Both the position numbers and the translations under genes were made by a program. Source: Pseudarthrobacter sp. W1I19 (lineage in GTDB: Bacteria > Actinomycetota > Actinomycetes > Actinomycetales > Micrococcaceae). Taken from it: 64,000 nt of DNA. Under the pieces are notes generated by a model that was not told where the DNA came from, did no database searches, and worked only from the letters and a program-made list of their open reading frames with translations. The stretch is from assembly GCF_030817835.1 (NCBI RefSeq), contig NZ_JAUSZR010000001.1:3100001-3164000 (forward strand), in the 5' to 3' direction. Shown piece by piece: positions 11,782 to 57,213 of the stretch; the stretch's first letter is position 1, and each line of letters begins with the position of its first letter.

Positions 11782-13113
11782 CTATGCTATGCGGTCGATG
11801 ATCAGGCGCTGCGCCGGCCGTGATCCTTCGGGCGCTATCACCACAGCCTGCTCCAGTGCTTCCTTGGCGCGGGCGAAGCGTTCCGGGGTATCGGTCAGCA
11901 GGGTCATCAGTGGCTCGCCGGCCCGGACCACGGCGCCGGGCTTGGCGTGCATGCGCACCCCTGCACCCGCCTGCACTACGTCCTCCTTACGCGCCCGTCC
12001 AGCGCCGAGCCGCCATGCCGCCACCCCGACGGCCAAGGCGTCCAGCTCCACCAGCACGCCATCTGCCGGGGCGTACACCACCAACGATTCCCGGGCCACC
12101 GGCAGCTTGGCCCGCGGATCGCCGCCCTGGGCCTCGATCATGCGGTTCCAGACATCCATGGCGCGGCCGTCCCTCAGCGCTGCGGCGGGATCGGCGTCGT
12201 GCACTCCTGCGGCGGCGAGCATTTCCTCCGCGAGCCGGACAGTCAACTCCACCACATCATCAGGACCACCGCCGGCCAGCACCTCCACGGACTCCTCCAC
12301 CTCGATGGCGTTGCCGGCGGTGAGCCCAAGCGGCGTATTCATGTTGGTCAGGAGGGCCACGGTGTTGACCCCGGCGTCCTTGCCCAGGGCCACCATGGTC
12401 TCGGCGAGTTCGCGGGCCTTGGCCCCATCCTTCATAAAAGCACCGCTGCCCACCTTGACGTCCAGGACCAGCGAGCCGGTCCCCTCGGCGATCTTTTTGC
12501 TCATGATGGAGGATGCGATGAGCGGAATCGCCTCCACGGTGCCGGTGACATCGCGGAGTGCGTACAGCTTTTTGTCCGCGGGAGCCAGCCCGGCCCCGGC
12601 GGCGCAGATGACAGCGCCCACGTCCTGCAGCTGTGCCAGCATTTCCTCATTGCTGAGGCTGGCCCGCCAGCCGGGGATGGCCTCCAGCTTGTCCAGGGTG
12701 CCGCCGGTGTGCCCCAGTCCACGGCCGGAGAGCTGCGGAACGGCAACACCGAAGACGGCCACGAGCGGCGCGAGCGGCAGGGTGATCTTGTCCCCCACCC
12801 CGCCGGTGGAGTGCTTGTCCGAGGTGTATTTCAGGCCGCCGTCGGGCCGCCGCAGGCTGGAGAAGTCCATCCGCTCGCCGGAGGCGATCATTGCGGCCGT
12901 CCACCGGGCTATCTCGCTGTGGTTCATGCCGTTGAGCAGGATGGCCATGTTCAGGGCGGCCATCTGCTCGTCGGCGATGACACCCCTGGTGTAGGCATCG
13001 ATGGTCCAGTCGATCTGTTCGGGGCTGAGCGTGCCTTTGTCCCGCTTGACGCGGATGATGTCGACGGCGTCGAACGCTTCGGCGGTGTTGTTCTGTGCGC
13101 GGGGGCCTGTCAC
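11782..13113 (-). CDS. deoA: Thymidine/pyrimidine-nucleoside phosphorylase
   Basis: 443 aa. Phosphorolyses thymidine or deoxyuridine to the base and deoxyribose 1-phosphate. The signature KHSTGGVGDK lies at 100-109, followed by LSGRGLGHTGGTLDKLE, the phosphate and pyrimidine site of the family. The start is GTG 13113, with GGAGG 7 nt upstream and a GTGA overlap with the cdd stop; the frame remains open further upstream but inside cdd. It acts with cdd, converting imported cytidine-type nucleosides to usable sugar phosphate. Confidence 0.95.
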   Translation of the reverse strand: MTGPRAQNNTAEAFDAVDIIRVKRDKGTLSPEQIDWTIDAYTRGVIADEQMAALNMAILLNGMNHSEIARWTAAMIASGERMDFSSLRRPDGGLKYTSDKHSTGGVGDKITLPLAPLVAVFGVAVPQLSGRGLGHTGGTLDKLEAIPGWRASLSNEEMLAQLQDVGAVICAAGAGLAPADKKLYALRDVTGTVEAIPLIASSIMSKKIAEGTGSLVLDVKVGSGAFMKDGAKARELAETMVALGKDAGVNTVALLTNMNTPLGLTAGNAIEVEESVEVLAGGGPDDVVELTVRLAEEMLAAAGVHDADPAAALRDGRAMDVWNRMIEAQGGDPRAKLPVARESLVVYAPADGVLVELDALAVGVAAWRLGAGRARKEDVVQAGAGVRMHAKPGAVVRAGEPLMTLLTDTPERFARAKEALEQAVVIAPEGSRPAQRLIIDRIA

Positions 13114-13535
13114 CGGGTTTCCTCCAAGTGTTCGGGACCGAAGGCGTCGGGCAGCACCTGGTCCATGGTTTTGATGCCTTGGGTGGTCATGAGTTCCATG
13201 CCGGGCGCACGGAATTCGTACAGCAGCTGGCGGCAGCGGCCGCAGGGCATCAGGACCCTGCCGTTGCCGTCCACGCAGTAGAACGCCCGGAGCAGTCCGC
13301 CCCCGGTCATGTGCAGGTTGCCCACCAGCGCGCATTCAGCGCACAGGGTCAGCCCGTAACTGGCATTTTCGACGTTGCAGCCGCTGACAATCCGGCCGTC
13401 CTCGGTCACCGCCGCCGCCCCCACCGGGAACTTCGAATATGGCACGTACGCCTTCTGCATGGCCGCGACGGCGGCAGCCTCCAGGGCGGACCAGTCCGGT
13501 CCCTTCGCCCCGGCCACGGCGTCAACCCTTGACAT
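13110..13535 (-). CDS. cdd: Cytidine deaminase
   Basis: 141 aa zinc enzyme converting (deoxy)cytidine to (deoxy)uridine. Zinc site: LCAECAL (Cys and catalytic Glu) and PCGRCRQLLYEF (two Cys); the substrate loop is NVENASYG. ATG 13535 overlaps the end of the upstream permease by 14 nt; a GTG six codons downstream has AAGGG 8 nt before it and is a real alternative start. It is coupled translationally to deoA. Confidence 0.94.
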   Translation of the reverse strand: MSRVDAVAGAKGPDWSALEAAAVAAMQKAYVPYSKFPVGAAAVTEDGRIVSGCNVENASYGLTLCAECALVGNLHMTGGGLLRAFYCVDGNGRVLMPCGRCRQLLYEFRAPGMELMTTQGIKTMDQVLPDAFGPEHLEETR

Positions 13536-14847
13536 AGGGGATACCGCTGGCCGCCGGGCCCCGTGACCTGCCCACCAGCCCGGCCACAGCAAGGACAGTC
13601 ACCAGGTAGGGCAGCATGGCCATGAACTGGCTGGGTACCGGGGTTCCGATGATGGTCACGATGCTCTGCAGGTTGTCCGCGAAACCGAAGAGCAGCGCAG
13701 CGGAGAAGGCTCCGATCGGGTTCCACCGGCCGAAAATCAGGGCGGCCAACGCGATAAAGCCGCGCCCGCCTGAGATTTCCTTGGTGAAGCTGTCGATCGC
13801 CACCAGGGTGAAGAATGACCCGCCGATGCCGGCCACTGCCCCGCCCAGGGTGACGTTCCAGAACCGGGTGGCGTTGACGTTGATGCCCAGGGTGTCGGCG
13901 GCCTGCGGGTGCTCGCCCACGGCCCGGACCCGCAGGCCCCAGCGGGTTTTGAACAGACCTACCCAGACCACAAGGACCGCGATGTACATCAGGTATCCCA
14001 CCAGGGACTGGCGGAACAGGATGGGCCCGATGATCGGAATGCTGGACAAGACGGGAATCTCGATGATGTCCAGCCCGGGAGGGGAATTGAACCGGGCCTT
14101 GGTGGCCTGCATTACGGTGCTGAAGAGGAATCCCGTGACGCCGGAGACCAGGACGTTGAGCACCACGCCCACGATGATCTGGTTGACGAGGTATTTGATG
14201 CTGAACAGCGCCAGCACCATGGACACCACGGCGCCGGCAACGGCGGCGGCCGCCAGCCCGATGAACGGGTTCTGCGTCATGCTGGCCACGATGGCGGCGG
14301 TGAAGGCGCCGCCCAGGAGCTGGCCCTCGATGGCGATATTCACCACGCCCACGCGCTCACACAGGACGCCGGACAGCGAGCCGAACACCAGCGGGACCGC
14401 CAGGGTGACAGAGCCGGCAATAAGGCCGGCGAGGGAAATGTTCGGGGTCCGGGCGCCGCCCACCACCCAGATGAGGAACGCGGCCACGAACAGGACGATG
14501 AACGTCACGGTCAGCCAGCCCGGAGCGGGCCTGCCCTTGGTCTTGAGGTAGGCGGCATAGCCGGCGAGTCCCAACAGGAGGACGGAGAGGACGATGCCGC
14601 CGGCAAAGGCGTTGACCTGCAGTGCCGGCAGCTGGAAAAAGTCCTCGCCGGTGGAGATCCCGAAGCTGGCGGTCTGGTTGGGTGCCAGCAGGCCGAAGAA
14701 GACCAGGGCAATCAACCCGAAGATGGTGAGCAGGACCGGGGTCCGCCAGGTCACTGGTTTGGTGGAGATGGCGGCTGAGCCGGCATCCGGTGCTGTGCTG
14801 TCCGGCTGGGGCTTTCCGGGCCGGGGTGAGGAAACTGTTGTGCTCAT
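13522..14847 (-). CDS. Nucleoside ABC transporter permease (second)
   Basis: 441 aa integral membrane subunit of the BPD_transp_2 family found with BmpA-type binding proteins. A Pro/Ser/Thr-rich cytoplasmic head (1-45) is followed by about ten hydrophobic helices; the family segment LCERVGVVNIAIEGQLLGGAF lies mid-protein and EHPQAADTLGINVNATRF is in a cytoplasmic loop. ATG 14847 overlaps the upstream permease stop (ATGA). Together with the gene at 14844 it forms the membrane channel for nucleosides. Confidence 0.92.
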   Translation of the reverse strand: MSTTVSSPRPGKPQPDSTAPDAGSAAISTKPVTWRTPVLLTIFGLIALVFFGLLAPNQTASFGISTGEDFFQLPALQVNAFAGGIVLSVLLLGLAGYAAYLKTKGRPAPGWLTVTFIVLFVAAFLIWVVGGARTPNISLAGLIAGSVTLAVPLVFGSLSGVLCERVGVVNIAIEGQLLGGAFTAAIVASMTQNPFIGLAAAAVAGAVVSMVLALFSIKYLVNQIIVGVVLNVLVSGVTGFLFSTVMQATKARFNSPPGLDIIEIPVLSSIPIIGPILFRQSLVGYLMYIAVLVVWVGLFKTRWGLRVRAVGEHPQAADTLGINVNATRFWNVTLGGAVAGIGGSFFTLVAIDSFTKEISGGRGFIALAALIFGRWNPIGAFSAALLFGFADNLQSIVTIIGTPVPSQFMAMLPYLVTVLAVAGLVGRSRGPAASGIPYVKG

Positions 14848-16217
14848 GCTGCACCTCCGGTGGTTGCTGCCTTGCGGGACTTGGCGGTGCGGGCCTGCTT
14901 CTTGCGCCGCGGATTCAGGCCGAAGACGGCCCGGACCAGTGGCGGTGCCGCAATAAAGAGCACGATCAGGGACTGGACCACCAGGACGATGTCGATGGGG
15001 GTTCCGGTCTGGATCTGCATCTGGACGGCTCCGGCGCGGAAGGCGCCGAACAGGAGGCCGGCGGCGAAGGTGCCCCACGGCGTCGAACGTCCCAGGAGGG
15101 CAACGGTGATGGCGTCGAACCCGTAGGTGGCGGCCACGCCGTCGGTCAGGACTTTCTCGGTGCCCGCCACCTGGGCCACGCCGGACATGCCGGCCAGCGC
15201 GCCCGCGAGGGCCATCACCAGGACGGTGGACCGGGAGACGTTGATGCCGGCGGTCTGGGCCGCCTTGGGGTTGGCGCCGACAGCCCGGAACTCGAAGCCC
15301 ACGGTGGAGCGGTTCAGCAGCCACCACACCAGGACGGTGGCCGCGATGGCCAGCAGGAAACCGAGGTGCAGCCGGTACTGCGTGCCAAAAATCTGCGGGT
15401 AGACGGCGCTGGGGTCCAGGATGGGCGAGATGGGGTTGGTCTCCCCCGGCCGCTGGAACGCCGGCGTGTTCAGCAGGAAGCGCAGGAAGTACAGCGCGAT
15501 GTAATTGAACATGATGGTGAGGATGACCTCGTGGGCGCCGGTCCGTGCCTTGAGGACACCGACGAGTCCGCCCCAGAAGGCGCCGCCGACGATGCCCGCC
15601 AGCAGGACCAGCAGCAGGTGCAGTCCCACGGGCAGGTGGAGCGCGAAGCCCACCCAGGCGGCCAGGATGCCGGCCACGATGATCTGCCCCTGGGCACCGA
15701 TATTGAACAGGCCCGCGCGGAAGGCCAGTGCGACGCCGAGGCCGGCCGTGATGAGCGGCGTGGCGATGGTGAGTGTCTCCATGAACGGCGCGAACTGGGC
15801 CGCAACGCTGTTGCCCCGCGGGTTGAAGACCGAGCCTTGGAACAGCGCTATGTAGGAGCGGGTGGCGGCGTTCCAGACGGCCGTCAGGAAGTCGGTGGGA
15901 CGGGCGAAGAAGTACGTGGAGGTGGTGGCCACCTGCTTGTCGGTGCTGGCGATCAGGAGCCCGCCGATGATGAGCGCCAGCAGCACGGCCAGGACCGAGA
16001 CCATCCCGCTGCCGGTAAAGATCCTGCGCAGCACGTTGTCCGGGCCGCCCGGCAGCTGCCCGCTCTGGGCAGAGGCTGGAACGGCGGAGGGCTCCATGGC
16101 ACCGCCGGCCGTGTCAACGGAGACGACGGCGGCCGTCAGGTCTTCCGCAGGCGTGGCCTCCTGCGCCCCGGGGCCGGGTTCACCAGCCGCGTGCTTGGGT
16201 GGATGCTTGTCAGACAT
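14844..16217 (-). CDS. Nucleoside ABC transporter permease (first)
   Basis: 457 aa. BPD_transp_2 permease with a long disordered cytoplasmic head (1-75, Ala/Pro/Glu-rich) and about nine membrane helices. Conserved loops RAGLFNIGAQGQIIVAG and ANPKAAQTAGINVSRS match partners of BMP-family nucleoside transporters. The C-terminus is basic. It overlaps the ATPase gene by 8 nt and the second permease by 4 nt, showing translational coupling within the operon. Confidence 0.92.
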   Translation of the reverse strand: MSDKHPPKHAAGEPGPGAQEATPAEDLTAAVVSVDTAGGAMEPSAVPASAQSGQLPGGPDNVLRRIFTGSGMVSVLAVLLALIIGGLLIASTDKQVATTSTYFFARPTDFLTAVWNAATRSYIALFQGSVFNPRGNSVAAQFAPFMETLTIATPLITAGLGVALAFRAGLFNIGAQGQIIVAGILAAWVGFALHLPVGLHLLLVLLAGIVGGAFWGGLVGVLKARTGAHEVILTIMFNYIALYFLRFLLNTPAFQRPGETNPISPILDPSAVYPQIFGTQYRLHLGFLLAIAATVLVWWLLNRSTVGFEFRAVGANPKAAQTAGINVSRSTVLVMALAGALAGMSGVAQVAGTEKVLTDGVAATYGFDAITVALLGRSTPWGTFAAGLLFGAFRAGAVQMQIQTGTPIDIVLVVQSLIVLFIAAPPLVRAVFGLNPRRKKQARTAKSRKAATTGGAA

Positions 16218-28531: not shown

Positions 28532-29833
28532 CTATTTGCCGATGGCGGCCTTACTTTCGCTGATCCATTGTTCCGCCGCCTTTTCCGGCGTCAGCCGCTT
28601 GAACAGGACTTCAGTGTTGATGCGGGCCGTGATCTCGGAGACAGCAGTGGATCCCGTGGGTCCGATGAAGGTTGGGGCGAAGTCCATCTTCCCGATCGCA
28701 TCAATGTAGTCCGCCTCCACCTTGCCCTGCGGCGTCAGCAGGTCCTTGATGGCCGTGCGCATTTCAGGGTTGCTGGGGACTCCGCGGTCGCTCTGGATGA
28801 TTTTGGCGGCTGACTCGTTGTTCACCAGGAAGCTGACCAGTTTCGCGGCAGCGTCCGTATGCTTGCTCCGCGCGGAGATGGTGTAGAACTGCGACGACTG
28901 CAGCCAGATCCCCGGGGTGGGGTTTTCGCCGGGAAGCTTGAGCAGCTTCAAATCCGCGCCCGATGCCTTGCTCAGCGCAGTGAGCGAGTTGCTCCAGGTG
29001 AGCATCATGGCCGCTTTGCCCATGCCCATCAGGGTTTGCTCCGTACTCACGTTGAGCTTCTCCACTGTCTCTGATGCACTGGGCGCAGCGCCGGACTCGC
29101 TCAGCTTCAAGCTGTAGTTGAAATAGTCCTGGACCGTTCCCTGGTCCAGTCCGAGCCGGCCGTCCTGGGTGTACAGCGACTGGCCGTGCTGCCGAGCGAA
29201 GGCGTCCAGCGAATCGTGGGTGAGGACTGTTGCCGTTCCGTACGTGCCTTTGGGGCTCTTGGCAGTTACGTCCGAGGCGACCTTCGCGAAATCGTCCCAA
29301 CTCCATGTGCTGTCATCCGGAATGGCAACACCGGCGGCCTGGAAGACCGCAGGGTTGGCGACGATTGACAAGGCATTGGCGCCGGTGGATACACCGTACT
29401 GCTTCCCTTGGACCTGGCCGTTCTCCAGCGCGCCCTGGTCCATCTTTGTCAGGTCCAGGGAACCGCTGACCTTGCTGAGATCCAGGAGAGCCCCCCGGTT
29501 GGCATATTCGGCCGGATAAGCGCCGCCCATGGTGATCACGTCAGGGGCATCATTGGCCGCTACCTGTGTTGCCAGCTTGTCAAAGTACCCGCCGATGTCC
29601 CCGTATTCGGGCTTGACCTTGATGTTGGGGTTGGCGGCCTCGAATTCGGCGATGGCCTTGTTGGTCAGCTCCGCCCGCCCTGCGTTGCCCCACCAGGAGA
29701 ATCGGATTTCAACAGGGCCGTCCCCAGGCTGGTTCGACGAAGCGCTGGAGCATCCTGCCGTGACGCCCAGAAGGCCCAGTGCAGTGAGTATTGCGACTGA
29801 TTTACGGATTTTTCCAAAAACTCTACGCGTCAT
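28532..29833 (-). CDS. Carbohydrate ABC transporter solute-binding lipoprotein (orphan)
   Basis: 433 aa CUT1-type extracellular sugar-binding protein. Signal peptide with lipobox VTAGC near residue 28; then RFSWWGNAGRAE and DAPDVITMGG, standard for family 1 binding proteins of oligosaccharide importers. No permease or ATPase gene is adjacent. Its promoter carries a LacI-type element nearly identical to the one at the pectate lyase gene, which makes a pectin-derived oligosaccharide a likely ligand (inference). ATG 29833 with GGAAGAAG upstream. Confidence 0.9.
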   Translation of the reverse strand: MTRRVFGKIRKSVAILTALGLLGVTAGCSSASSNQPGDGPVEIRFSWWGNAGRAELTNKAIAEFEAANPNIKVKPEYGDIGGYFDKLATQVAANDAPDVITMGGAYPAEYANRGALLDLSKVSGSLDLTKMDQGALENGQVQGKQYGVSTGANALSIVANPAVFQAAGVAIPDDSTWSWDDFAKVASDVTAKSPKGTYGTATVLTHDSLDAFARQHGQSLYTQDGRLGLDQGTVQDYFNYSLKLSESGAAPSASETVEKLNVSTEQTLMGMGKAAMMLTWSNSLTALSKASGADLKLLKLPGENPTPGIWLQSSQFYTISARSKHTDAAAKLVSFLVNNESAAKIIQSDRGVPSNPEMRTAIKDLLTPQGKVEADYIDAIGKMDFAPTFIGPTGSTAVSEITARINTEVLFKRLTPEKAAEQWISESKAAIGK

Positions 29834-29847
29834 TGGGCAAGCTTCTT

Positions 29848-29866
29848 CCAGTCAGAAAGCGGTTTC
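29848..29866 (-). promoter_or_regulatory. LacI-type operator at the sugar-binding protein gene
   Basis: Minus strand GAAACCGCTTTCTGACTGG. It differs at one base from the element at 57150-57168 before the pectate lyase gene. It lies just downstream of the -10 box (29876-29871), overlapping the expected start of transcription, the usual place for repression. Confidence 0.75.
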
Positions 29867-29870
29867 GTGA

Positions 29871-29900
29871 AACGTATCAAGGACGCCTGCCGAGGGTCAA
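29871..29900 (-). promoter_or_regulatory. Promoter of the sugar-binding protein gene
   Basis: Minus strand TTGACC (29900-29895), 18-nt spacer, TACGTT (29876-29871). The LacI-type element begins 4 nt downstream. Confidence 0.7.
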
Positions 29901-29936
29901 GGGGTAGCGCACGGGCTTTAGGCCGGCGGGGTGGGG

Positions 29937-29966
29937 TTGACAGTATCCGGCGCAGCGAACAAGGAT
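29937..29966 (+). promoter_or_regulatory. Promoter of the glycosidase-like gene
   Basis: TTGACA (29937-29942), 18-nt spacer and AAGGAT (29961-29966). Transcription would begin near 29973, just before the palindrome at 29977. Confidence 0.6.
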
Positions 29967-29976
29967 TGGAACCTCG

Positions 29977-29988
29977 GAAACCGGTTTC
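29977..29988 (+). promoter_or_regulatory. LacI-type operator, perfect palindrome GAAACCGGTTTC
   Basis: A perfect 12-bp palindrome centred on CpG, the hallmark of LacI-family sites, located at about +5 to +16 of the predicted transcript. Same core as the elements at 29855-29866 and 57157-57168. Confidence 0.75.
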
Positions 29989-30044
29989 TAGGCGAAGCGC
30001 GTTTCCACTCCCAGTCCAGCACCAGCACCGGAAGGGCGTGCAGC

Positions 30045-32327
30045 GTGCACAGCCAAAGCACCACCAGCCTGCCAGGAATGTCTTCCACCGGTTCCGCCAA
30101 CAGCGCCGCCATCGACAGGCAAGCACTCGTCCGGCGCCACAACGTGTGCCAGCGGACCCTGGATCCCCGAAGCCCCGTCTCCGTGGGTAACGGCGAGTTC
30201 GCTTTCACCGTGGACCTCACCGGACTCCAGTCAATCCCCGACGCTTACCCGGTGGGTGCACGGGACGAGCTGCCGGCGGGAACCCTGCTGGGCACGCAGG
30301 CCCAGTGGGGCTGGCATTCGACACCCCCGGAGCAGCCGTACGGGCTCGCCGGTTCCACCGTCCTCTACGACTCCCCTCGAGGACCGGTTCCCTACGTGGA
30401 CATGGTGGGAAACATCGTTAATGACCGGGAAACGGATGCCTCCAGGGCGGAAACGTGGCTCAGGGCGAACCCCCACCGACTGGACCTGGGCCGCATAGGA
30501 TTCCGGCTGGTGGAGGACGGAACAGAACGGGCAATCATACGGGACGATGTAGCCCACACCCGGCAGACGCTCGATCTGTGGACCGGCGTGGTGAGCAGCA
30601 GCTTTACCCTGGCAGGCCACCCGGTCACTGTCACCACCGCCTGCCACCCGGACCGCGACGAAATCGGACTGCGCGTGGTGTCGCCGGCGCTCAGGCACGG
30701 TCTGGTGGTGGCCATGGATTTCCCATACGGTTCCGAGGCCTGGCACGATGCGGCGGACTGGAACCGCCCGGATGCCCACACCACCATGCTCGGGGAACCC
30801 GCGCCGTTCGGACTTCATGCCGGATCCAGCAGCTGGACCGCTATGCGCACGTTGGACGCTGCACGCTACGAGGTGGTGGTCACCGGCAACAACCTTAGGG
30901 TGGAACAAACCGGGCAGCATCGCCTTCGAATCGCTCCCAGCAGCGCCGCCCAGGGCCAGGACCACGCGGATGCCATGGACCTTGCCATTGCATTTATCCC
31001 AGACGGAACCGGCGGCTGCATCCCGCGGGGTGACAGCAGGCTGTCCCGGGTGGCGGCAAAGCCAGCCAAGGACGCAGGGGCCGGAACCGCCGTCGGCCTT
31101 TCACCGGGCAGCACCCTGTCCCCCGGCAGTGCCGTTGCCGATGCCTCCGCCGCCTACTGGCCCCGGTTCTGGTCCTCCGGCGGTGCCATTGAGCTGGAGG
31201 CGACAGACGATCCCCGGGCGAAGGAGCTGGAGCGCCGGATTGTTCTCTCCCAGTATTTGACCGCCATCAACTGCTCGGGCTCGCTGCCGCCGCAGGAAAC
31301 AGGGTTGGTCTGCAATTCCTGGCGCGGCCGCTTCCACCTCGAAATGCACTGGTGGCATGCCGCCCACTTTGCCCACTGGAACCGTCCCGAACTCCTGCTG
31401 CCCTCCTTGCGCTGGTACTCCACTGTGATGGAACCTTCACGCGCGACTGCAAGGGCGCAAGGCTTCGACGGCGTCCGTTGGCCCAAGCAGGTGGGCCCCG
31501 ACGGCAGGGAGAGCCCCAGCCCCATCGGGACGTTCCTCATCTGGCAGCAGCCGCACCCCATCCACCTGGCCGAACTCGTGTATCGCGCCCGCCCCGGCCG
31601 TGAGGTGCTGGAGGAATTCGGGGACATCGTGTTCGAAACGGCCGAGTTTATGGCCAGTTTCGCGCATCCAACCTCCCGGGGATTTGAACTGGGGCCTCCG
31701 TTGATACCTGCGCAGGAGAGCTACGGCAGCATCCGAGGCTCAGTCACCAACCCCACGTTCGAGCTCGCGTATTGGCAGTGGGCCCTTCGGGTCGCAGCTG
31801 CCTGGCGGGAAAGGCTGGGGCTGGAGCCCATCCCGGCCTGGCAGGAGGTGGCTGACGGGATGGTGCAGCCGCGGGTGATCGATGGCGTCTACGCTGCCAT
31901 TGAGGTGGAGCCGTTCACCATCCGGACGGATCATCCTTCGATGCTATGCGCACTCGGTGTACTGCCGGAGACTGACGTCATCGACAAGGACATCATGCGG
32001 GCAACACTGGCGGAGGTGCTTGCCGACTGGGACTGGGGCAGCACCTGGGGCTGGGACTATCCCGTCATGGCCATGACCGCGGCGCGCCTCGGCGACCCGG
32101 AGGCTGCCGTCAACGCACTCCTGATGGACGCGGGGAAGAACACCGTCCTGCCCAACGGACACAACCGCCAGACGGACTCACTGCCGCTGTACCTGCCGGG
32201 CAACGGCGGGCTCCTCGCCGCCGTCGCACTGATGGCCGCCGGCTGGGATAACGGACCGGACCTCCATGCCCCTGGTTTCCCGCCCGGCTGGACTGTGGCG
32301 TGGGAAGGCCTGGTGGCCGCACCATAG
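30045..32327 (+). CDS. Putative (alpha/alpha)6-barrel glycosidase-like protein
   Basis: About 760 aa, no signal peptide, so cytoplasmic. An N-terminal beta-rich part with SPVSVGNGEFAFTVDLTGLQ (near 55) and QWGWHS is followed by a helical part containing EMHWWHAAHFAHWNRPELL, WQQPHPIHLAELVYR and TWGWDYPVMAMTAARLG. This resembles six-hairpin glycoside hydrolases related to GH65-like proteins, but I cannot assign a family or catalytic residue. GTG 30045 is chosen because GGAAGGG lies 8 nt upstream and it is downstream of the operator; ATG 30078 is the alternative. Control by the pectin-type operator suggests action on imported oligosaccharides (inference). Confidence 0.75.
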   Translation: MHSQSTTSLPGMSSTGSANSAAIDRQALVRRHNVCQRTLDPRSPVSVGNGEFAFTVDLTGLQSIPDAYPVGARDELPAGTLLGTQAQWGWHSTPPEQPYGLAGSTVLYDSPRGPVPYVDMVGNIVNDRETDASRAETWLRANPHRLDLGRIGFRLVEDGTERAIIRDDVAHTRQTLDLWTGVVSSSFTLAGHPVTVTTACHPDRDEIGLRVVSPALRHGLVVAMDFPYGSEAWHDAADWNRPDAHTTMLGEPAPFGLHAGSSSWTAMRTLDAARYEVVVTGNNLRVEQTGQHRLRIAPSSAAQGQDHADAMDLAIAFIPDGTGGCIPRGDSRLSRVAAKPAKDAGAGTAVGLSPGSTLSPGSAVADASAAYWPRFWSSGGAIELEATDDPRAKELERRIVLSQYLTAINCSGSLPPQETGLVCNSWRGRFHLEMHWWHAAHFAHWNRPELLLPSLRWYSTVMEPSRATARAQGFDGVRWPKQVGPDGRESPSPIGTFLIWQQPHPIHLAELVYRARPGREVLEEFGDIVFETAEFMASFAHPTSRGFELGPPLIPAQESYGSIRGSVTNPTFELAYWQWALRVAAAWRERLGLEPIPAWQEVADGMVQPRVIDGVYAAIEVEPFTIRTDHPSMLCALGVLPETDVIDKDIMRATLAEVLADWDWGSTWGWDYPVMAMTAARLGDPEAAVNALLMDAGKNTVLPNGHNRQTDSLPLYLPGNGGLLAAVALMAAGWDNGPDLHAPGFPPGWTVAWEGLVAAP

Positions 32328-32338
32328 CCCTGCCGGGA

Positions 32339-33475
32339 TCAGCGCTGTTTTGCCGCGCCAGTACCCCGGCGCCGGACAGTAGCCGGGGTCCCATTGTCCG
32401 TGTGGACGGGCACCTTGCCCGGCTGGACCTGACGGGCTCCAAGGGTGCCTTTTTCATGTCCGTTCAACCCATTGTGCAGGTCGGCCTCACGGACCGCCGC
32501 CCAGCCCGCTGCGACGAGGTACACCTGGCTCACCAGGTTGAACCAGATCAGCAGGCCGATAATGATGGCGAAGGGCGCAAGGAGGGGATTTCGTCCGGCC
32601 CCGGCAAGCAGTTCGGTACTGAAGACCTGCAGCACGGTGGTACCCAACGCAGCGAGGACAGTGCCTTCCAGCAGTGCTCTGCGCGAAAGCTTCAGGCTCC
32701 CTCCCAGCCGGAACATGATGACGGCCGTAACCCAGCTCAAGACAAGCGGGACCGCAATCTTTACCGAGGTCGTCAGTGGCCCGGCAACGGCGTCGTCAAG
32801 CCGCAGGAAGTCTGCCACCCAGCCTGCGGCGGTGCCGAACAACAAGGAGGCGCCGGCGCTGATGACCAGGGCCAGGCCCAGCAGCAGCAACGTGCCGGCA
32901 TCGCGCAGCTTCAAAAGGACCGGGTTGACACGCAAAGGCGGGAACTGAAGGACTCCGCGGAGGCCATCCCGCAGGCCGGCGATCCAACCCAGCGACGTGA
33001 TTACCGTGACTATCGCTGCAATGAAGGCCGTCCAGCCCAACCCGTCAGGGTTCAACAGGTCCTTCGGATCGACCAGTCCTTCCCCGTTGCCAACCTTCAA
33101 GAGCCCGGGTGCGCTTTGGGCGACACTCTCGATGATGGTGTCCAGCAGTGCCTGCTGGCTCCGGAGCACCAGGCCGGCGATGGAAAAGCCGGTAGCGAGG
33201 AGGCCGGTAATCGAGAAGAACATCCTGAAGCCGATGCCGGCGCTCATCAACGGGCCGCGCTGGAGATTGTAGTGCTGGAAGGCCCGCAGGGGCCGGAGCG
33301 TGTTGAGCCGGGCAAGCAGCCATTGGACCATCGCCAGCAGGCTGGGCAGCGCGCCGCCGTCGGACCTCCGGACCTTGCCCCATTCCATCCGCTTTTGAAT
33401 GACAGCGAGCTTAAGTTGGGAGCGGTCAGTGGGAAGCGGAGGCTCCGCCGGCATCCGCGGACCAGGTCCCGGCAT
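32339..33475 (-). CDS. YihY/BrkB family membrane protein
   Basis: About 378 aa. Polytopic inner-membrane protein of the YihY (formerly RNase BN/BrkB) family, function unsettled. Marks are RGPLMSAGIGFRMFFSITGLL near 70-90 and about six hydrophobic helices, ending in a basic, Thr-rich tail. The start is uncertain: ATG 33475 (MPGPGPRM) is used, ATG 33454 is also possible; both overlap the end of the 2'-5' RNA ligase-like gene. It converges with the glycosidase-like gene, leaving 11 nt. Confidence 0.85.
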   Translation of the reverse strand: MPGPGPRMPAEPPLPTDRSQLKLAVIQKRMEWGKVRRSDGGALPSLLAMVQWLLARLNTLRPLRAFQHYNLQRGPLMSAGIGFRMFFSITGLLATGFSIAGLVLRSQQALLDTIIESVAQSAPGLLKVGNGEGLVDPKDLLNPDGLGWTAFIAAIVTVITSLGWIAGLRDGLRGVLQFPPLRVNPVLLKLRDAGTLLLLGLALVISAGASLLFGTAAGWVADFLRLDDAVAGPLTTSVKIAVPLVLSWVTAVIMFRLGGSLKLSRRALLEGTVLAALGTTVLQVFSTELLAGAGRNPLLAPFAIIIGLLIWFNLVSQVYLVAAGWAAVREADLHNGLNGHEKGTLGARQVQPGKVPVHTDNGTPATVRRRGTGAAKQR

Positions 33476-34121
33476 GGTTGTCAGTTTCGGTCCCAAAGTC
33501 CAGCTCTTCCCGTAGCTGCCAGATGCCGTCCGCATCGTGCTCGTAGAGTCCCATGCTAACCACGGGGAAGGTGGCTCTGTAGTTCTTCAATACCGTTTCG
33601 GCCTCATCGAGGCTTTCAGGGGCAACATCGTGGGCGATGGTGACGTGCGGGTGGTAGGCGAAGGGAAGATCCCGCTGGAGGGGGCCCTGCTGGAGCTTCT
33701 CGTGGAGGTCCACGCAGGCCTCGAAACCTTCCTCCACGTTGATGAACACCACCGGCGAAACGGGACGGAACGTTCCGGTACCGGCGATGGTGACCATAAA
33801 GGGGCTTTGGCGGCGGGCCACGTCCCGCACGTGCTCCCGGGTAGCCTCCCAGTCCCGGGTAGGCGTGGTGGTCACCAGCGTGATGTGGGCCGGGACCACT
33901 CCTGCGAGGGGATCCCCGAAGGAAGCCCGCCAGCGCTGCAGCTCCTCAGCCACCTCCGGCGGGAAGCCCAGAATGACGCCGACGCTGATATCTTCCGTCC
34001 GGGACGGCCCATGCCCGGCCGCGCCGGTGTCCTCCGCCGGGTCGCCTTGGGGGTCGCCTCGCCTGCCCGCTGCTCGGACGGAGCGGGAGCCTTCCCTTGC
34101 GGTGACTTTGCTGGACGGCAT
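33426..34121 (-). CDS. 2'-5' RNA ligase family (2H phosphoesterase) protein
   Basis: 231 aa. After a charged head of about 45 residues, the LigT/2H fold shows its two H-x-T motifs: PAHITLVTT near 78 and YHPHVTIAHD near 156. Such proteins ligate or open 2',3'-cyclic phosphates on RNA or nucleotides. It starts 4 nt after trpS, with AGGAG 12 nt upstream, so it is expressed with trpS. The substrate is not known. Confidence 0.88.
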   Translation of the reverse strand: MPSSKVTAREGSRSVRAAGRRGDPQGDPAEDTGAAGHGPSRTEDISVGVILGFPPEVAEELQRWRASFGDPLAGVVPAHITLVTTTPTRDWEATREHVRDVARRQSPFMVTIAGTGTFRPVSPVVFINVEEGFEACVDLHEKLQQGPLQRDLPFAYHPHVTIAHDVAPESLDEAETVLKNYRATFPVVSMGLYEHDADGIWQLREELDFGTETDNHAGTWSADAGGASASH

Positions 34122-53049: not shown

Positions 53050-54336
53050 ATGAACGCCCTCAAGAAGCTATTTGGCGGAAATACCCGCCAATTCGGCATG
53101 ATCTTTGCCCTGGTGGCCCTGATCGTCTTCTTCCAGATCGCCACCAGCGGCCGGACCCTCACCCCCGGCAACGTCATCAACCTCTTCAACGGCAACTCCT
53201 ACATCCTGATCCTGGCCATCGGGATGGTCCTGGTCATCATCGCCGGCCACATCGACCTCTCAGTCGGTTCTGTGGCAGCCTTCGTGGGCGTCACGGTAGC
53301 CCTGGCCATCCGCGACTGGGGAATCCCCTGGTATGCCGGCGTGCTCCTGGGCCTGGTGCTCGGTGCGGTGATCGGCGCTTGGCAAGGATGGTGGACAGCG
53401 TACGTGGGGATTCCAGCCTTCATTGTCACCCTGGCCGGCATGCTGCTGTTCCGCGGCTTCAACCAGTTCGTGGGCAAATCCAATACCATCCCGGTACCCA
53501 ATGACTTCCAGTACCTCGGCTCCGGCTACCTCCCTGAGATTGGGCCCAACACCGGCTTCAACAACCTCACCCTGCTGCTGGGCATCGCCGCCGCAGCGTT
53601 CGTGGTGTGGGGCGAACTCCGCTCCCGGGCCCGCGCCAAGGCCCTTGGTGCCGAGGTACCGGAAATGTGGGTCACCGCGCTCAAGCTGGTCCTGATCTGT
53701 GGTGCCATCCTCTACGCCACGTACCTCTTCGCCACCGGCAGGCCGGGCACCTCGTTCCCGATCCCCGGGCTCATCCTGGCCGTCCTGGTGTTGGTTTACG
53801 GCTTCATCGCCTCCCGCACCATCCTCGGCCGGCACGTCTACGCAGTCGGCGGCAACCGCCACGCGGCCGAACTCTCCGGTGTCCAGTCCAAGAAGGTCAA
53901 CTTCCTGGTCATGATGAACATGTCCATCCTGGCCGGCCTGGCCGGCATGATCTTCGTTGGCCGTTCCACAGCATCGGGCCCCTTCGACGGCGTGGGCTGG
54001 GAACTCGATGCGATCGCAGCAGTATTTATCGGCGGCGCTGCGGTCACAGGCGGCGTGGGTACCGTCGTCGGGTCCATCATTGGTGGCCTGGTGATGGCTG
54101 TGTTGAACAACGGCCTTCAACTTCTCGGCATTGGCGCCGACCTCACCCAGATCATCAAGGGCCTCGTCCTCCTGATCGCCGTCGCCTTCGACGTCTACAA
54201 CAAGAGCCAGGGAAAGAGGTCCATCATCGGCCTGCTGACCCGGAACTTCAACCGCCCCGCCTCAGGCGGTCCCAGCAACCCGCTCCAGCCCGACGAGACC
54301 ACCTCCACCAAGGAAGCGATCGCCAGGGAAGCCTGA
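53050..54336 (+). CDS. gguB: Multiple-monosaccharide ABC transporter permease
   Basis: 428 aa, about ten membrane helices of the BPD_transp_2 family. Marks: AIGMVLVIIAGHIDLSVGSVAAFVG-type segment near 57-80, VYAVGGNRHAAELSGV near 262-277 and FIGGAAVTGGVGTVVGSIIGG near 323-343. A large loop at 185-225 is typical of the GguB/MmsB group. The C-terminus is cytoplasmic and Ser/Pro/Glu-rich. Confidence 0.92.
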   Translation: MNALKKLFGGNTRQFGMIFALVALIVFFQIATSGRTLTPGNVINLFNGNSYILILAIGMVLVIIAGHIDLSVGSVAAFVGVTVALAIRDWGIPWYAGVLLGLVLGAVIGAWQGWWTAYVGIPAFIVTLAGMLLFRGFNQFVGKSNTIPVPNDFQYLGSGYLPEIGPNTGFNNLTLLLGIAAAAFVVWGELRSRARAKALGAEVPEMWVTALKLVLICGAILYATYLFATGRPGTSFPIPGLILAVLVLVYGFIASRTILGRHVYAVGGNRHAAELSGVQSKKVNFLVMMNMSILAGLAGMIFVGRSTASGPFDGVGWELDAIAAVFIGGAAVTGGVGTVVGSIIGGLVMAVLNNGLQLLGIGADLTQIIKGLVLLIAVAFDVYNKSQGKRSIIGLLTRNFNRPASGGPSNPLQPDETTSTKEAIAREA

Positions 54337-54386
54337 GCCTTGCAGCCTGAATAGCGGTACACCACCACAAAGAAAGAGAACCAACA

Positions 54387-55484
54387 ATGAGAATGTTTGG
54401 TAAAGCAGGAAAGGCCGCAGCGGTTGCTGCCATCGCAGCGCTGACGCTGACGGGCTGCGGCCGCTCCGAGCCCAGCACGGGCGGCGGGACAGAAGGCGCC
54501 GGTGGCTTCGAGAAGGACGCCTCCATCGCCGTTGCACTCCCGCAGAAGACCAGTGAGAACTGGGTCCTCTCCGAAAAGCTGTTCAATGACGGCCTCAAAG
54601 ATGCCGGATTCAAGGCTGATGTCCAGTTTGCCAATGCCGGCGTTTCCGAACAGCAGAACCAGATCAGCGCCATGATCACCAAGAACCCCAAGGTCCTCAT
54701 CGTGGGCGCTGTCGACGGCACCCAGCTCGGCACCCAGCTGAAGCAGGCCAAGGATGCAGGCGCCACCATCATCGCCTACGACCGCCTGCTGCTGAACACC
54801 GAGAACGTGGACTACTACGTGGCCTACGACAACTTCAAGGTGGGCGTCCTTCAGGGCCAGGCGCTGCTGGAAGGCATGAAGGCCAAGAAGCCGTCCGGCC
54901 CGTACAACATCGAACTGTTCGCCGGCTCCCCCGACGATGCCAACGCCAAGGTCTTCTTCGACGGCGCCATGAGCGTCCTGAAGCCGAAGATCGACGACGG
55001 CACCCTCAAGGTCCTGTCCGGCCAGACCAGCTTCGAGCAGGCCGTAACCCAGGCTTGGAAGGGCGAAAATGCCCAGCGCCGCGCTGACACCCTGCTCAGT
55101 GGCAGCTACACCAGCGAAAACCTGGACGGTGTCCTGTCACCCAATGATCTCCTGGCCCGCGCGGTGTTGACATCCGTCAAGGCGGCAGGCAAGCCGATCC
55201 CGGTGATCACCGGCCAGGACTCCGAGGTAGCGTCTGTCAAGTCGATCCTGGCTGGCGAGCAGTACTCCACCATCAACAAGGACACCCGCAAGCTCGTTGA
55301 GCACGCCATCACCATGGTGAAGGACCTCCAGGCCGGCAAGACGCCTGAAATCAACGACAAGGACTCCTACAAGAACGGCGTCAAGACAGTTCCGGCCTAC
55401 CTGCTGGAGCCGGTCATCGTCACCTCCGCCAACGTGAAGACTGCCTACACCGACGACCCGATACTCGGCCCGATCACCAAGTAA
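54387..55484 (+). CDS. chvE: ChvE-like sugar-binding lipoprotein
   Basis: 365 aa periplasmic-type binding protein 4 fold. Lipoprotein signal with LTLTGC (Cys about 24). The segments SIAVALPQKTSENWV, VDGTQLGTQLKQAKDAG, AYDRLLLNTENVDYYV and GQDSEVASVKSILAG match ChvE and multiple-sugar-binding proteins, which take xylose, arabinose, galactose or galacturonate-like sugars. Third gene of the ROK-controlled operon, 50 nt after the permease. Confidence 0.93.
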   Translation: MRMFGKAGKAAAVAAIAALTLTGCGRSEPSTGGGTEGAGGFEKDASIAVALPQKTSENWVLSEKLFNDGLKDAGFKADVQFANAGVSEQQNQISAMITKNPKVLIVGAVDGTQLGTQLKQAKDAGATIIAYDRLLLNTENVDYYVAYDNFKVGVLQGQALLEGMKAKKPSGPYNIELFAGSPDDANAKVFFDGAMSVLKPKIDDGTLKVLSGQTSFEQAVTQAWKGENAQRRADTLLSGSYTSENLDGVLSPNDLLARAVLTSVKAAGKPIPVITGQDSEVASVKSILAGEQYSTINKDTRKLVEHAITMVKDLQAGKTPEINDKDSYKNGVKTVPAYLLEPVIVTSANVKTAYTDDPILGPITK

Positions 55485-55571: not shown

Positions 55572-57068
55572 CTACTGCTTGACGGTCAATACGCCCGGTC
55601 CGGTGAACTGGAGCGCGTGGTTCTTCACCGCCTGTGCAGTGGTGAACGCCTTGTAGTTGTAGGCATCGGCAGGGTTCCAGCCGACGTCGGTGGTGAAGTC
55701 CCAGCCGGTCCAGTCCGGGGCGGGTTCCCCACCGAGCTCGGCCTCGATGATCGCCTCCGCCCGGTTCTGTTCAAACGACGTCCGGGCCACCTGGTCCAGG
55801 TCCGCTTCGGCTCCGTTGTACCAGGACCCGACGTCATTGAAACGGTGGCCGTTATAGCTGCTCACCATGATGGACGGGTCCGCGCCCGGGCCGGTGTATT
55901 CAAAGGCATTGCGCTCAGAGAAGATCCGGGACTCATAGCCGGCGCCGAGGAAGTAGCTGCTGCCGCCTTGGGCTTCACTGATCATGGGATACTGCGGGTG
56001 GTCTGTGCTTCCCACAAAGTAGTTGTTCAACACATGGACCTGGCCGAACCGCACCCGCGGTCCCCGCTGCTGAATGTTCTCGAAGTAGTTCCCGATGAAG
56101 CTGACCCGCAGTTTGCCACCATCCTTGTCCACGTGTTCGTCGCCTGATCCCAGCAGCATTGTCTTGTCGTGGTTGGAGAGCCTGCTGTTTGAAATGGTCA
56201 CGAAGTCGGTGCCGTCCTTGAGGTCCAGCAGGCCGTCATGCCGGTTCGCCCGCTTCCCGCGGAAACCCGCAGGGGCCTCACTGTCCGGGAACCTGCCGTC
56301 GGTGAGACGGACATGGTCTATCCACAGGTGATCCGAGGTCACCGAGGAGACGGCGTCAAAGCGCGCATTCCAGGCACCCTCCCCATCATCCGGTGACCAG
56401 GTGGTGAAGAAGTCCACCGGGGCCTCCACGCTGAGATTGCGCACCACTACGTTGGTGGCGCTGAGGATCACGATATTCGTACCCACGAATCCCGAATCTG
56501 CGCCGACCCCAATCAGGGTGGTGTTGCTCGGCAGGCTCACCTCGATCTGCCGTTTCATGTTGTTGCTGCCGGTCTGCCGCAACTGTCGCTGCTGCTTGCA
56601 GTAGTCAAACGTTTGGTCGCTCCATGCCTTCCCTTCCGGGCCGAAGCAGGACATGTACTTATTGATGTCGTACCCTGGGGCGTAGTCCTGCTTCCCCAGG
56701 ATGCGGCCATCAGGGGTCTGGTTGCCGTCGATCGTTCCGTTGATGTAGACGATTTTCGGCGCCGTGGGCTCGCCATGGTTTGCAAGCGCGGCCTTAAGCC
56801 CGGCCAGCGTGCTGACCTCATAGCGGTTTTCGGCAGGCGCCCCCGCCCCACCGTTTGTACCGCTTCCGACGGCGGCCCAGCCGGTTGGTGCCGAGTCATC
56901 CGCTTTGATGACACCTCCCCCGGCGGGACCCGGGTTGGCCACCCCGGGCGCTGCCAGAGCCAGCCCCGCCGCGAGGGCAAACGCTGAAGCAGAGGCAGCA
57001 ACTCCGGCCCCGCGGCGGAGATTGCCGAGGCAGGATGCAAAGGTTCGAGTTGTTGTTTTGGACGTCAT
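55572..57068 (-). CDS. Secreted pectate lyase (polysaccharide lyase family 1)
   Basis: About 498 aa. Signal peptide (1-45, Ala-rich, cleavage near VANPGP). The parallel beta-helix carries the PL1 marks: HLWIDHVRLTDGRF (the vWiDH motif), NRHDGLLDLKDGTDFVTISNSRL with the calcium-binding Asp cluster, SNHDKTMLLGS and RGPRVRFGQVHVLNNYF with the catalytic Arg. It cleaves polygalacturonate by beta-elimination outside the cell. ATG 57068 is preferred over ATG 57086. Its promoter has the LacI-type element shared with the sugar-binding protein at 28532. Confidence 0.93.
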   Translation of the reverse strand: MTSKTTTRTFASCLGNLRRGAGVAASASAFALAAGLALAAPGVANPGPAGGGVIKADDSAPTGWAAVGSGTNGGAGAPAENRYEVSTLAGLKAALANHGEPTAPKIVYINGTIDGNQTPDGRILGKQDYAPGYDINKYMSCFGPEGKAWSDQTFDYCKQQRQLRQTGSNNMKRQIEVSLPSNTTLIGVGADSGFVGTNIVILSATNVVVRNLSVEAPVDFFTTWSPDDGEGAWNARFDAVSSVTSDHLWIDHVRLTDGRFPDSEAPAGFRGKRANRHDGLLDLKDGTDFVTISNSRLSNHDKTMLLGSGDEHVDKDGGKLRVSFIGNYFENIQQRGPRVRFGQVHVLNNYFVGSTDHPQYPMISEAQGGSSYFLGAGYESRIFSERNAFEYTGPGADPSIMVSSYNGHRFNDVGSWYNGAEADLDQVARTSFEQNRAEAIIEAELGGEPAPDWTGWDFTTDVGWNPADAYNYKAFTTAQAVKNHALQFTGPGVLTVKQ

Positions 57069-57149
57069 TGGCCTTGTTTCCGGCATGCCAAACAGACCAC
57101 ATGCCTTAGTGGGTGCGGATCGGATGAAAAAGGATTGCCAGAGGGAAGA

Positions 57150-57168
57150 CCAGTCAGAAAACGGTTTC
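57150..57168 (-). promoter_or_regulatory. LacI-type operator at the pectate lyase gene
   Basis: Minus strand GAAACCGTTTTCTGACTGG, one mismatch from the element at 29848-29866 over 19 bp. It lies 15 nt downstream of the -10 box, over the start of the transcript. Confidence 0.75.
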
Positions 57169-57182
57169 CCGCTCGGTCTTCT

Positions 57183-57213
57183 ATTCTTACTTCTCCCGTG
57201 ACAAAGCTGTCAA
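57183..57213 (-). promoter_or_regulatory. Pectate lyase promoter
   Basis: Minus strand TTGACA (57213-57208), 18-nt spacer, TAAGAAT (57189-57183). The best consensus promoter in the window. Confidence 0.75.

What the first reader, a model, noticed from the sequence alone, without database searches (positions are those of the whole stretch)
29848..29988. Dispersed pectin-type regulon: three matching LacI-type operators
On the minus strand, 29866-29848 reads GAAACCGCTTTCTGACTGG and 57168-57150 reads GAAACCGTTTTCTGACTGG, 18 of 19 identical though 27 kb apart. A third site, GAAACCGGTTTC, is a perfect palindrome at 29977. All three lie just downstream of a good promoter, at the expected transcript start, of the orphan sugar-binding lipoprotein, the pectate lyase and the glycosidase-like gene. 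One LacI-family repressor, encoded elsewhere, would therefore switch a secreted lyase, a binding protein and an intracellular glycosidase together.
Basis: partly seen in the sequence, partly recalled or inferred. Interest (0 to 1): 0.75.

Follow-up and report, generated by a model that had tools for sequence, protein, structure and literature searches.

The report
Pectin-use regulon with one repressor
Three matching DNA switches seen in this stretch of an Arthrobacter-type soil bacterium belong to a set of fourteen in its genome that sit mostly in front of genes for breaking down and taking up pectin, so one repressor protein probably controls the whole pectin programme, including an enzyme of unknown function.

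Summary
The sites lie at 29855-29866, 29977-29988 and 57157-57168. The fuller motif, GAAANCGNTTTC, has 14 sites in the 4.81-Mb genome against 1 for the reversed control. They adjoin two pectate lyases, a PL11 rhamnogalacturonan lyase, four related sugar-binding proteins, a permease pair, a hexuronide-type symporter, an aldo-keto reductase, the window's glycosidase, and a uronate-oxidation operon with a divergent LacI gene. That LacI is the likely repressor: it alone of 30 LacI promoters examined (37 genes) has the motif, and all 48 orthologues found in 61 genus genomes have it upstream (40 exact, 8 with one mismatch). Before pectate lyase genes the site is kept in 28 of 29 loci counted. The neighbouring rhamnose LacI has a different operator. 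The 19-base match is chance beyond the 12-base core. The binding protein's nearest solved relative is YesO. The glycosidase has a GH65-like fold but no Pfam or NCBIfam match; the genome shows no PF07470 (GH88/105) protein. Binding and expression were not tested. A new regulon of a known kind, with one interesting uncharacterised enzyme.

The parts
29855..29866 (.). Operator (minus-strand reading GAAACCGCTTTC) in front of the sugar-binding lipoprotein gene, 22-33 bases before its ATG
   Evidence: before the orthologous lipoprotein gene exact in 9, one mismatch in 3 and absent in 7 of the 19 loci where it lies near the glycosidase
29871..29900 (-). Promoter-like elements of the lipoprotein gene: TTGACC at 29895-29900, weak -10 TACGTT at 29871-29876, 18-base spacer
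   Evidence: read by eye; strict scan found none
28532..29833 (-). Sugar-binding lipoprotein (SBP_bac_1/8), 433 aa; closest solved relative YesO of B. subtilis; neighbours scanned are succinate dehydrogenase subunits, an alpha/beta hydrolase, the glycosidase and a BrkB protein, no permease
   Evidence: 45-49% identical to the two binding proteins beside the regulon's permease pair
29937..29966 (+). Promoter-like elements of the glycosidase gene: TTGACA at 29937-29942, weak -10 AAGGAT at 29961-29966, 18-base spacer
   Evidence: read by eye; similar in relatives printed; strict scan found none
29977..29988 (.). Operator, perfect palindrome GAAACCGGTTTC, in front of the glycosidase gene (101-90 bases before ATG 30078)
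   Evidence: exact site within 400 bp upstream in 16 of 24 loci
30078..32327 (+). GH65-fold glycosidase/phosphorylase-like protein, 749 aa from the likely ATG; no Pfam or NCBIfam match
57157..57168 (.). Operator (minus-strand reading GAAACCGTTTTC) in front of the pectate lyase gene; it also lies 124 bases before a divergent Gfo/Idh-type oxidoreductase gene (57292-58362 +)
   Evidence: exact site before 28 of 29 pectate lyase loci counted
57184..57213 (-). Promoter-like elements of the pectate lyase gene: TTGACA at 57208-57213, weak -10 TAAGAA at 57184-57189, 18-base spacer
   Evidence: read by eye; -35 similar in relatives printed; strict scan found none
55572..57086 (-). Secreted pectate lyase, PL1 (PF00544), 504 aa
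   Evidence: signal-like N-terminus by eye

Best explanation
GAAANCGNTTTC is the operator of one LacI-family repressor, encoded about 2.5 Mb away (genome 644737-645768, minus strand) and divergent from a uronate-oxidation operon. A dimer binds each palindrome at or just past the -10 and blocks transcription. When pectin breakdown delivers an inducer (probably galacturonate or an early product of it), the repressor leaves. The cell then makes, together, secreted lyases and a pectinesterase, binding proteins that feed a shared ABC permease pair, a hexuronide-type symporter, the intracellular GH65-fold enzyme and the oxidative uronate pathway. Three operators in the repressor's own intergenic region imply autoregulation. 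Shown here: site distribution, gene content, conservation, and linkage to this LacI gene. Inferred: binding, repression, inducer identity, permease sharing, pathway activities.
For: 14 sites against 1 control site in the genome (Poisson tail about 5e-12 for expectation 1). Genes at the sites: PL11 rhamnogalacturonan lyase; PL1 pectate lyases, one followed by a pectinesterase; four sugar-binding proteins; GPH symporter; aldo-keto reductase; an operon with KdgD-type dehydratase, galactarate-dehydratase-type enolase, epimerase-family protein and aldehyde dehydrogenase. LacI link: exact operator upstream of the LacI gene in 40 of 48 orthologues in the genus sample, one mismatch in the other 8; GVSHATVSRV identical in all 48; exact in 79 of 80 named loci (the two sets overlap); only this one of 30 LacI promoters has the motif. 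Site number follows the orthologue: median 14 at 87% identity or more (28 genomes), 7 at 74-81% (12), 1.5 at 66-73% (8), 2 where absent (13). Pectate lyase: exact site in 28 of 29 loci. In a gapped alignment of the 13 orthologous upstream regions with a site, the operator is the best-kept 12-base window (1.0 at the ten defined columns, 0.46 at the two N columns; 60 bases upstream 0.71, downstream 0.62); these 13 were chosen for having the site, but they are 13 of 14 orthologue loci. Two operators flank the -10 of the second pectate lyase type, 22 bases apart in 6 of 7 loci and 23 in 1. The window binding protein is nearest to YesO (E 3.6e-60).
Against: No binding, expression or growth data. 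Site count correlates almost as well with the neighbouring rhamnose LacI (Spearman 0.83 against 0.85), because both follow phylogeny. The 13 genomes without the orthologue still have 30 sites against 5 in the control, so some sites exist without this LacI; the 8 genomes at 66-73% identity have 12 sites against 21 in the control; and the control itself differs between groups. In six genomes the glycosidase and binding protein occur without an exact site. One pectate lyase orthologue (L214, G038) has no site within two mismatches in 1,500 bp; its match starts at residue 56. The epimerase-family protein has no strong solved uronate dehydrogenase relative.
Confidence: 0.82

Rival explanations
1. 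The sites belong to the rhamnose-cluster LacI (genome 677173-678192, RhaR-like), about 5.5 kb from one of them.
For: Present in largely the same genomes; site count correlates at Spearman 0.83. One site (683744) lies behind the rhamnose operon.
Against: Its own promoter region carries a different palindrome, TGAATCGTTTCA, in 18 of 18 relatives fetched and in this genome, and GAAANCGNTTTC in none of the 18. G030, G041 and G051 have the other LacI but no close relative of this one, though with only 4, 2 and 1 sites.
Confidence: 0.05
2. A global CcpA-like catabolite repressor uses these sites (the motif resembles the core of a cre box; that resemblance is recalled).
For: The LacI's closest solved relatives by sequence are CcpA proteins (E 7e-50).
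Against: Only 14 sites, at genes that fit pectin, oligosaccharide or uronate use; a global regulator should reach other sugars. NCBIfam's ccpA model scores 178 bits against a cut-off of 442.
Confidence: 0.04
3. Two or more paralogous LacI proteins share the motif and split the targets.
For: 37 LacI genes in the genome; genomes without the orthologue still have 30 sites against 5 in the control; one promoter (2505520) has AGAAAACCGGTTTTCT, similar with a different spacing.
Against: Only one LacI promoter of 30 examined carries the motif, and none of the other seven LacI genes lies within 30 kb of any of the 14 sites.
Confidence: 0.085
4. Chance or compositional artefact.
For: LacI-type palindromes are short.
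Against: 14 against 1 in the genome, 3 against 0.06 in the window, and conservation at lyase promoters.
Confidence: 0.005

Closest known systems
LacI-family sugar regulons, including UxaR, UxuR and KdgR for uronates in Bacteroides (PMC4052901, passages seen)
   Same: LacI-type regulator, palindromic operator, catabolic target genes
   Different: Different lineage; here secreted lyases, importers and an oxidative uronate path share one operator set. The word stem 'micrococc' does not occur in that main text; its supplements were not seen
RhaR of Actinomycetales, LacI type (PMC3870299, passages seen)
   Same: LacI-type regulator of a pectin sugar; a RhaR-like gene lies in the same genome
   Different: Different gene and operator; concerns rhamnose, not galacturonate or pectate lyase
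B. subtilis YesOPQ importer with PL11 lyases (PMC5730181, passages seen; the PL11 and GH105 roles are recalled)
   Same: YesO-like binding protein, a permease pair and a PL11 lyase among the targets
   Different: Dispersed over the chromosome under a LacI operator; no PF07470 protein in this genome. In B. subtilis the YesOPQ deletion had only a marginal effect
GH65 family (alpha-1,2-glucosidase 7fe3, kojibiose phosphorylase 3wiq)
   Different: 15% identity, no Pfam match; substrate unknown
Pectin degradation in Paenarthrobacter sp. FR1 (PMC12844168, abstract and passages seen)
   Same: Related genus with PL1 and PL11; a relative of the glycosidase is listed under the name FR1 (P0069)
   Different: That paper leaves regulation to future transcriptomics; GH105 and GH88 occur 0 times in its main text

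Membership tests
LacI-family transcription factor (candidate repressor) | PF00356 helix-turn-helix plus sugar-binding domain | tested here: met
   PF00356 57.9 bits, cut-off 27; full-length matches to LacI-family models and solved CcpA/PurR chains
LacI-family transcription factor (candidate repressor) | CG-centred palindromic operator upstream of its own gene | tested here: met
   40 of 48 exact, 8 of 48 one mismatch; 79 of 80 named loci exact
LacI-family transcription factor (candidate repressor) | Sugar-relieved binding to the operator | not testable with these tools
   needs purified protein
RhaR (Actinomycetales LacI type) | Operator of the rhamnose LacI equals the sites studied | tested here: not met
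   TGAATCGTTTCA upstream of it in 18 of 18 fetched, GAAANCGNTTTC in 0 of 18
CcpA | NCBIfam equivalog cut-off | tested here: not met
   178.4 bits against 442.35
Bacteroides UxaR/UxuR/KdgR orthologue | Orthology by tree | not tested
   no tree built
GH65 | Match to a Pfam GH65 model | tested here: not met
   no Pfam family at E 1e-3 (on the longer reading 29931-32324)
GH65 | Beta-sandwich plus helical (alpha/alpha)6 fold | tested here: met
GH88/GH105 | Match to PF07470 | tested here: not met
   no Pfam match of the protein; no PF07470 match in the whole genome
YesO-like binding protein | Sequence relationship | tested here: met
   5z6b E 3.6e-60 over residues 14-423
YesO-like binding protein | Binds rhamnogalacturonan oligosaccharides | not testable with these tools
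   needs a binding assay
PL1 pectate lyase | PF00544 and similarity to solved pectate lyases | tested here: met
   148.5 bits; 1bn8 E 2e-69

The most novel reading that the evidence does not exclude
The 749-aa GH65-fold enzyme under this operator is an unrecognised glycosidase (or phosphorylase) family that does the intracellular job of GH88/GH105 here: it opens unsaturated or rhamnogalacturonan-derived oligosaccharides made by the PL1 and PL11 lyases, in a genome with no PF07470 protein and whose only PF04962 protein is IolB rather than KduI. Against it: G026 has this LacI and a pectate lyase orthologue with the site but no such enzyme, and fusions to GH43 domains may point to side chains instead.
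Probability: 0.15. Interest if true: 0.7.

Novelty: new member of a known kind. Interest (0 to 1): 0.5.

Why it matters
It links dispersed pectin genes of Arthrobacter-type soil bacteria into one testable programme with a named candidate repressor and operator. It gives a functional context to a large set of unnamed GH65-fold proteins. It also exposes a gap: lyases that make unsaturated products in a genome where two of the usual enzyme families for using them were not found.

Tried and rejected
Rejected: the 19-base match as an extended operator (TGACTGG kept in 1 of 12 orthologues); the rhamnose LacI as owner; a global CcpA role; chance. Co-occurrence alone could not tell the two LacI genes apart. 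The first structure prediction from 19 close relatives was poor (pLDDT 55) and was not searched; a second from 87 sequences was good. A phylum-wide sample found the glycosidase in 2 of 198 genomes, one of them this genome and the other a weak partial match (E 7.8e-5) to a protein that looks like GH65 by eye.

Counts and dropped rows. One search did not orient minus-strand loci and was replaced. Glycosidase: 28 rows; 24 loci counted, L200-L203 dropped (pieces of a more distant homologue in G045 and G025). Pectate lyase: 52 rows, 30 loci fetched, 29 counted; L223 dropped (weak partial match; the unoriented scan saw no site in it). The ungapped column figures were replaced by the gapped alignment. 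LacI promoters: 30 of 37 genes had loci and were scanned. Genus figures come from 61 genomes drawn evenly from a larger group, this one included. Groups and numbers were copied by hand.

Not tested: other routes for unsaturated products (PL22, RpiB-type isomerase, GH28); GH88/105 in the relatives. The genes called in fetched stretches were found with a simple codon-position script, so some starts are uncertain.

Print: the listings of searches showed no paper on this regulon. The library lacks most subscription journals.

Full report
WHAT IS THERE. The window is bases 3100001-3164000 of a single 4,812,144-base contig. Relatives named in the searches are Arthrobacter, Pseudarthrobacter and Paenarthrobacter; Arthrobacter sp. 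OV608 is the nearest listed for the LacI (99%) and the glycosidase (93%). The three sites are real and exact, and three copies of GAAANCGNTTTC in 64 kb compare with a shuffled mean of 0.06.

GENOME-WIDE. The stricter reading GAAACCGNTTTC has 5 distinct sites with control 0. Allowing one mismatch brought in symmetric variants such as GAAAACGCTTTC, which suggested the palindrome GAAANCGNTTTC. That has 14 sites against 1 for the reversed pattern. Genes were called from codon-position GC and identified by profile searches. The sites are as follows. 291637: PL11 rhamnogalacturonan lyase. 645896, 645976 and 646052: between the LacI gene and an operon of a Gfo/Idh oxidoreductase, an epimerase-family protein, a KdgD-type dehydratase (401 bits to the subfamily model, cut-off 278), a galactarate-dehydratase-type enolase and an aldehyde dehydrogenase. 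658451: between a sugar-binding protein and a divergent ABC permease pair. 660779: a sugar-binding protein. 683744: a GPH symporter closest to glucuronide transporters (above the GPH cut-off, below the glucuronide equivalog cut-off). 3129855, 3129977 and 3157157: the window genes. 3588622: a sugar-binding protein; its one scanned neighbour on the far side is a Cpn60 chaperonin. 4031802: between an aldo-keto reductase and a divergent MLTR-type regulator; pectinesterase/pectate lyase genes lie about 2-5 kb before it and a second PL11 lyase 3 kb after it. 4699487 and 4699509: a second PL1 pectate lyase followed by a pectinesterase. Reading the uronate operon as the oxidative galacturonate route to 2-oxoglutarate rests on established knowledge of Udh-KdgD pathways; the enzyme activities are inferred, and the epimerase-family protein has no close solved uronate dehydrogenase relative.

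WHICH REGULATOR. The genome has 37 LacI genes. Of 30 promoters examined, only that of the LacI at 644737-645768 has the motif; none of the other seven LacI genes lies within 30 kb of a site. In the sample of 61 genus genomes an orthologue at 66% identity or more exists in 48. Its upstream region has an exact site in 40 and a one-mismatch site in 8, and GVSHATVSRV is identical in all 48. Among named genomes 79 of 80 loci have an exact site within 600 bp; these overlap with the unnamed set. Site counts fall with orthologue identity: medians 14, 7, 1.5 and, without orthologue, 2. Two facts weaken this. The rhamnose LacI gives nearly the same correlation (0.83 against 0.85). And the 13 genomes without the orthologue still hold 30 sites against 5 in the control, while the 8 genomes at 66-73% identity hold 12 against 21. 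What separates the two regulators is the operator upstream of each: TGAATCGTTTCA for the rhamnose LacI in 18 of 18 relatives fetched and in this genome.

CONSERVATION AT THE TARGETS. In front of pectate lyase genes (orthologues and paralogues of the window gene) the exact site occurs in 28 of 29 loci counted. The miss, L214, starts its match at residue 56 and has nothing within two mismatches in 1,500 bp upstream. Among the 13 of 14 orthologue loci with the site, a gapped alignment puts the operator as the best-kept 12-base window: 1.0 at the ten defined columns, which these rows were selected for, and 0.46 at both N columns, against 0.71 in the 60 bases upstream and 0.62 downstream; a block just before the start codon reaches 0.95. 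Free drift at the N positions inside a fixed palindrome is what a selected LacI operator should show. In seven of the fifteen paralogue loci two operators flank the -10, 22 bases apart in six and 23 in one, about two helical turns; the other eight show one site. Cooperative clamping is an inference. The glycosidase has an exact site within 400 bp in 16 of 24 loci; in two more (G021, G037) the site lies about 1,080 bp upstream, just before the binding-protein gene. The binding-protein orthologue lies within 1.5 kb of the glycosidase in 19 of 24 loci; before it the site is exact in 9, one mismatch in 3 and not seen in 7. Six relatives (G023, G048, G033, G034, G039, G008) keep both genes without an exact site, so this pair is not a universal member.

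A GAP WORTH TESTING. Lyases leave unsaturated ends. The genome has no PF07470 (GH88/105) match, while the control search rang in 3 of 14 known genomes. Its only PF04962 match is IolB (275 bits, cut-off 205) and not KduI (28 bits, cut-off 250). Other routes were not tested. The GH65-fold enzyme beside a YesO-like binding protein is one candidate. But G026 has the lyase and the LacI without the enzyme, so side-chain or other oligosaccharides are at least as likely.

VERDICT. An ordinary kind of regulon, not found in print by my searches, predicted with strong comparative evidence; the interest lies in its completeness and in the uncharacterised enzyme.

Noticed in passing
window 30078-32327; P0022, P0024, P0165, P0172: Relatives of the 749-aa glycosidase are fused to a GH43 domain (PF04616), and relatives of its more distant homologue to short-chain dehydrogenase domains, yet no Pfam entry matches it.
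   Followed up: partly
L271 (genome 3536134-3536901): The only PF04962 protein in the genome is IolB; no KduI by that model and no GH88/105 by PF07470, despite several pectate and rhamnogalacturonan lyases.
   Followed up: partly
L059:2150-2330 (genome about 678150-678330): The rhamnose-cluster LacI has a distinct conserved palindrome, TGAATCGTTTCA, upstream of it (18 of 18 relatives fetched).
   Followed up: yes
L060:4473-8019 and 12866-15418: Pectinesterase/pectate-lyase genes and a second PL11 lyase with a FIMAH domain lie near the aldo-keto reductase site but have no exact site directly before them.
   Followed up: no
G045, G043, G012, G022, G054, G051, G005, G041: LacI orthologues at 66-73% identity keep the same recognition region but have a one-mismatch operator upstream and only 1-2 exact sites in the genome: the regulon looks contracted or its motif has shifted.
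   Followed up: partly
G002, G010, G014, G018, G019, G024, G031, G032, G044, G046, G047, G050, G053: Genomes without the LacI orthologue still have 30 exact sites in all against 5 in the reversed control; what uses them is unknown.
   Followed up: no
L035 (genome 2505520): Another LacI gene has a perfect 16-base palindrome AGAAAACCGGTTTTCT upstream, similar to this operator but spaced differently.
   Followed up: no
window 32342-33535: A BrkB-family membrane protein gene follows the glycosidase in 19 of 24 loci, for no obvious reason.
   Followed up: no
window 57060-57105: A conserved block with GGCATGTG and GGCATGCC lies just before and at the pectate lyase start in the orthologues, possibly a leader element or a sign that the true start is the later ATG at 57068.
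   Followed up: no
window 57292-58362 and 53050-55484: A Gfo/Idh-type oxidoreductase diverges from the pectate lyase across the operator, and a sugar ABC permease and Peripla_BP_4 binding protein lie on its other side; they may also belong to pectin-sugar use.
   Followed up: no
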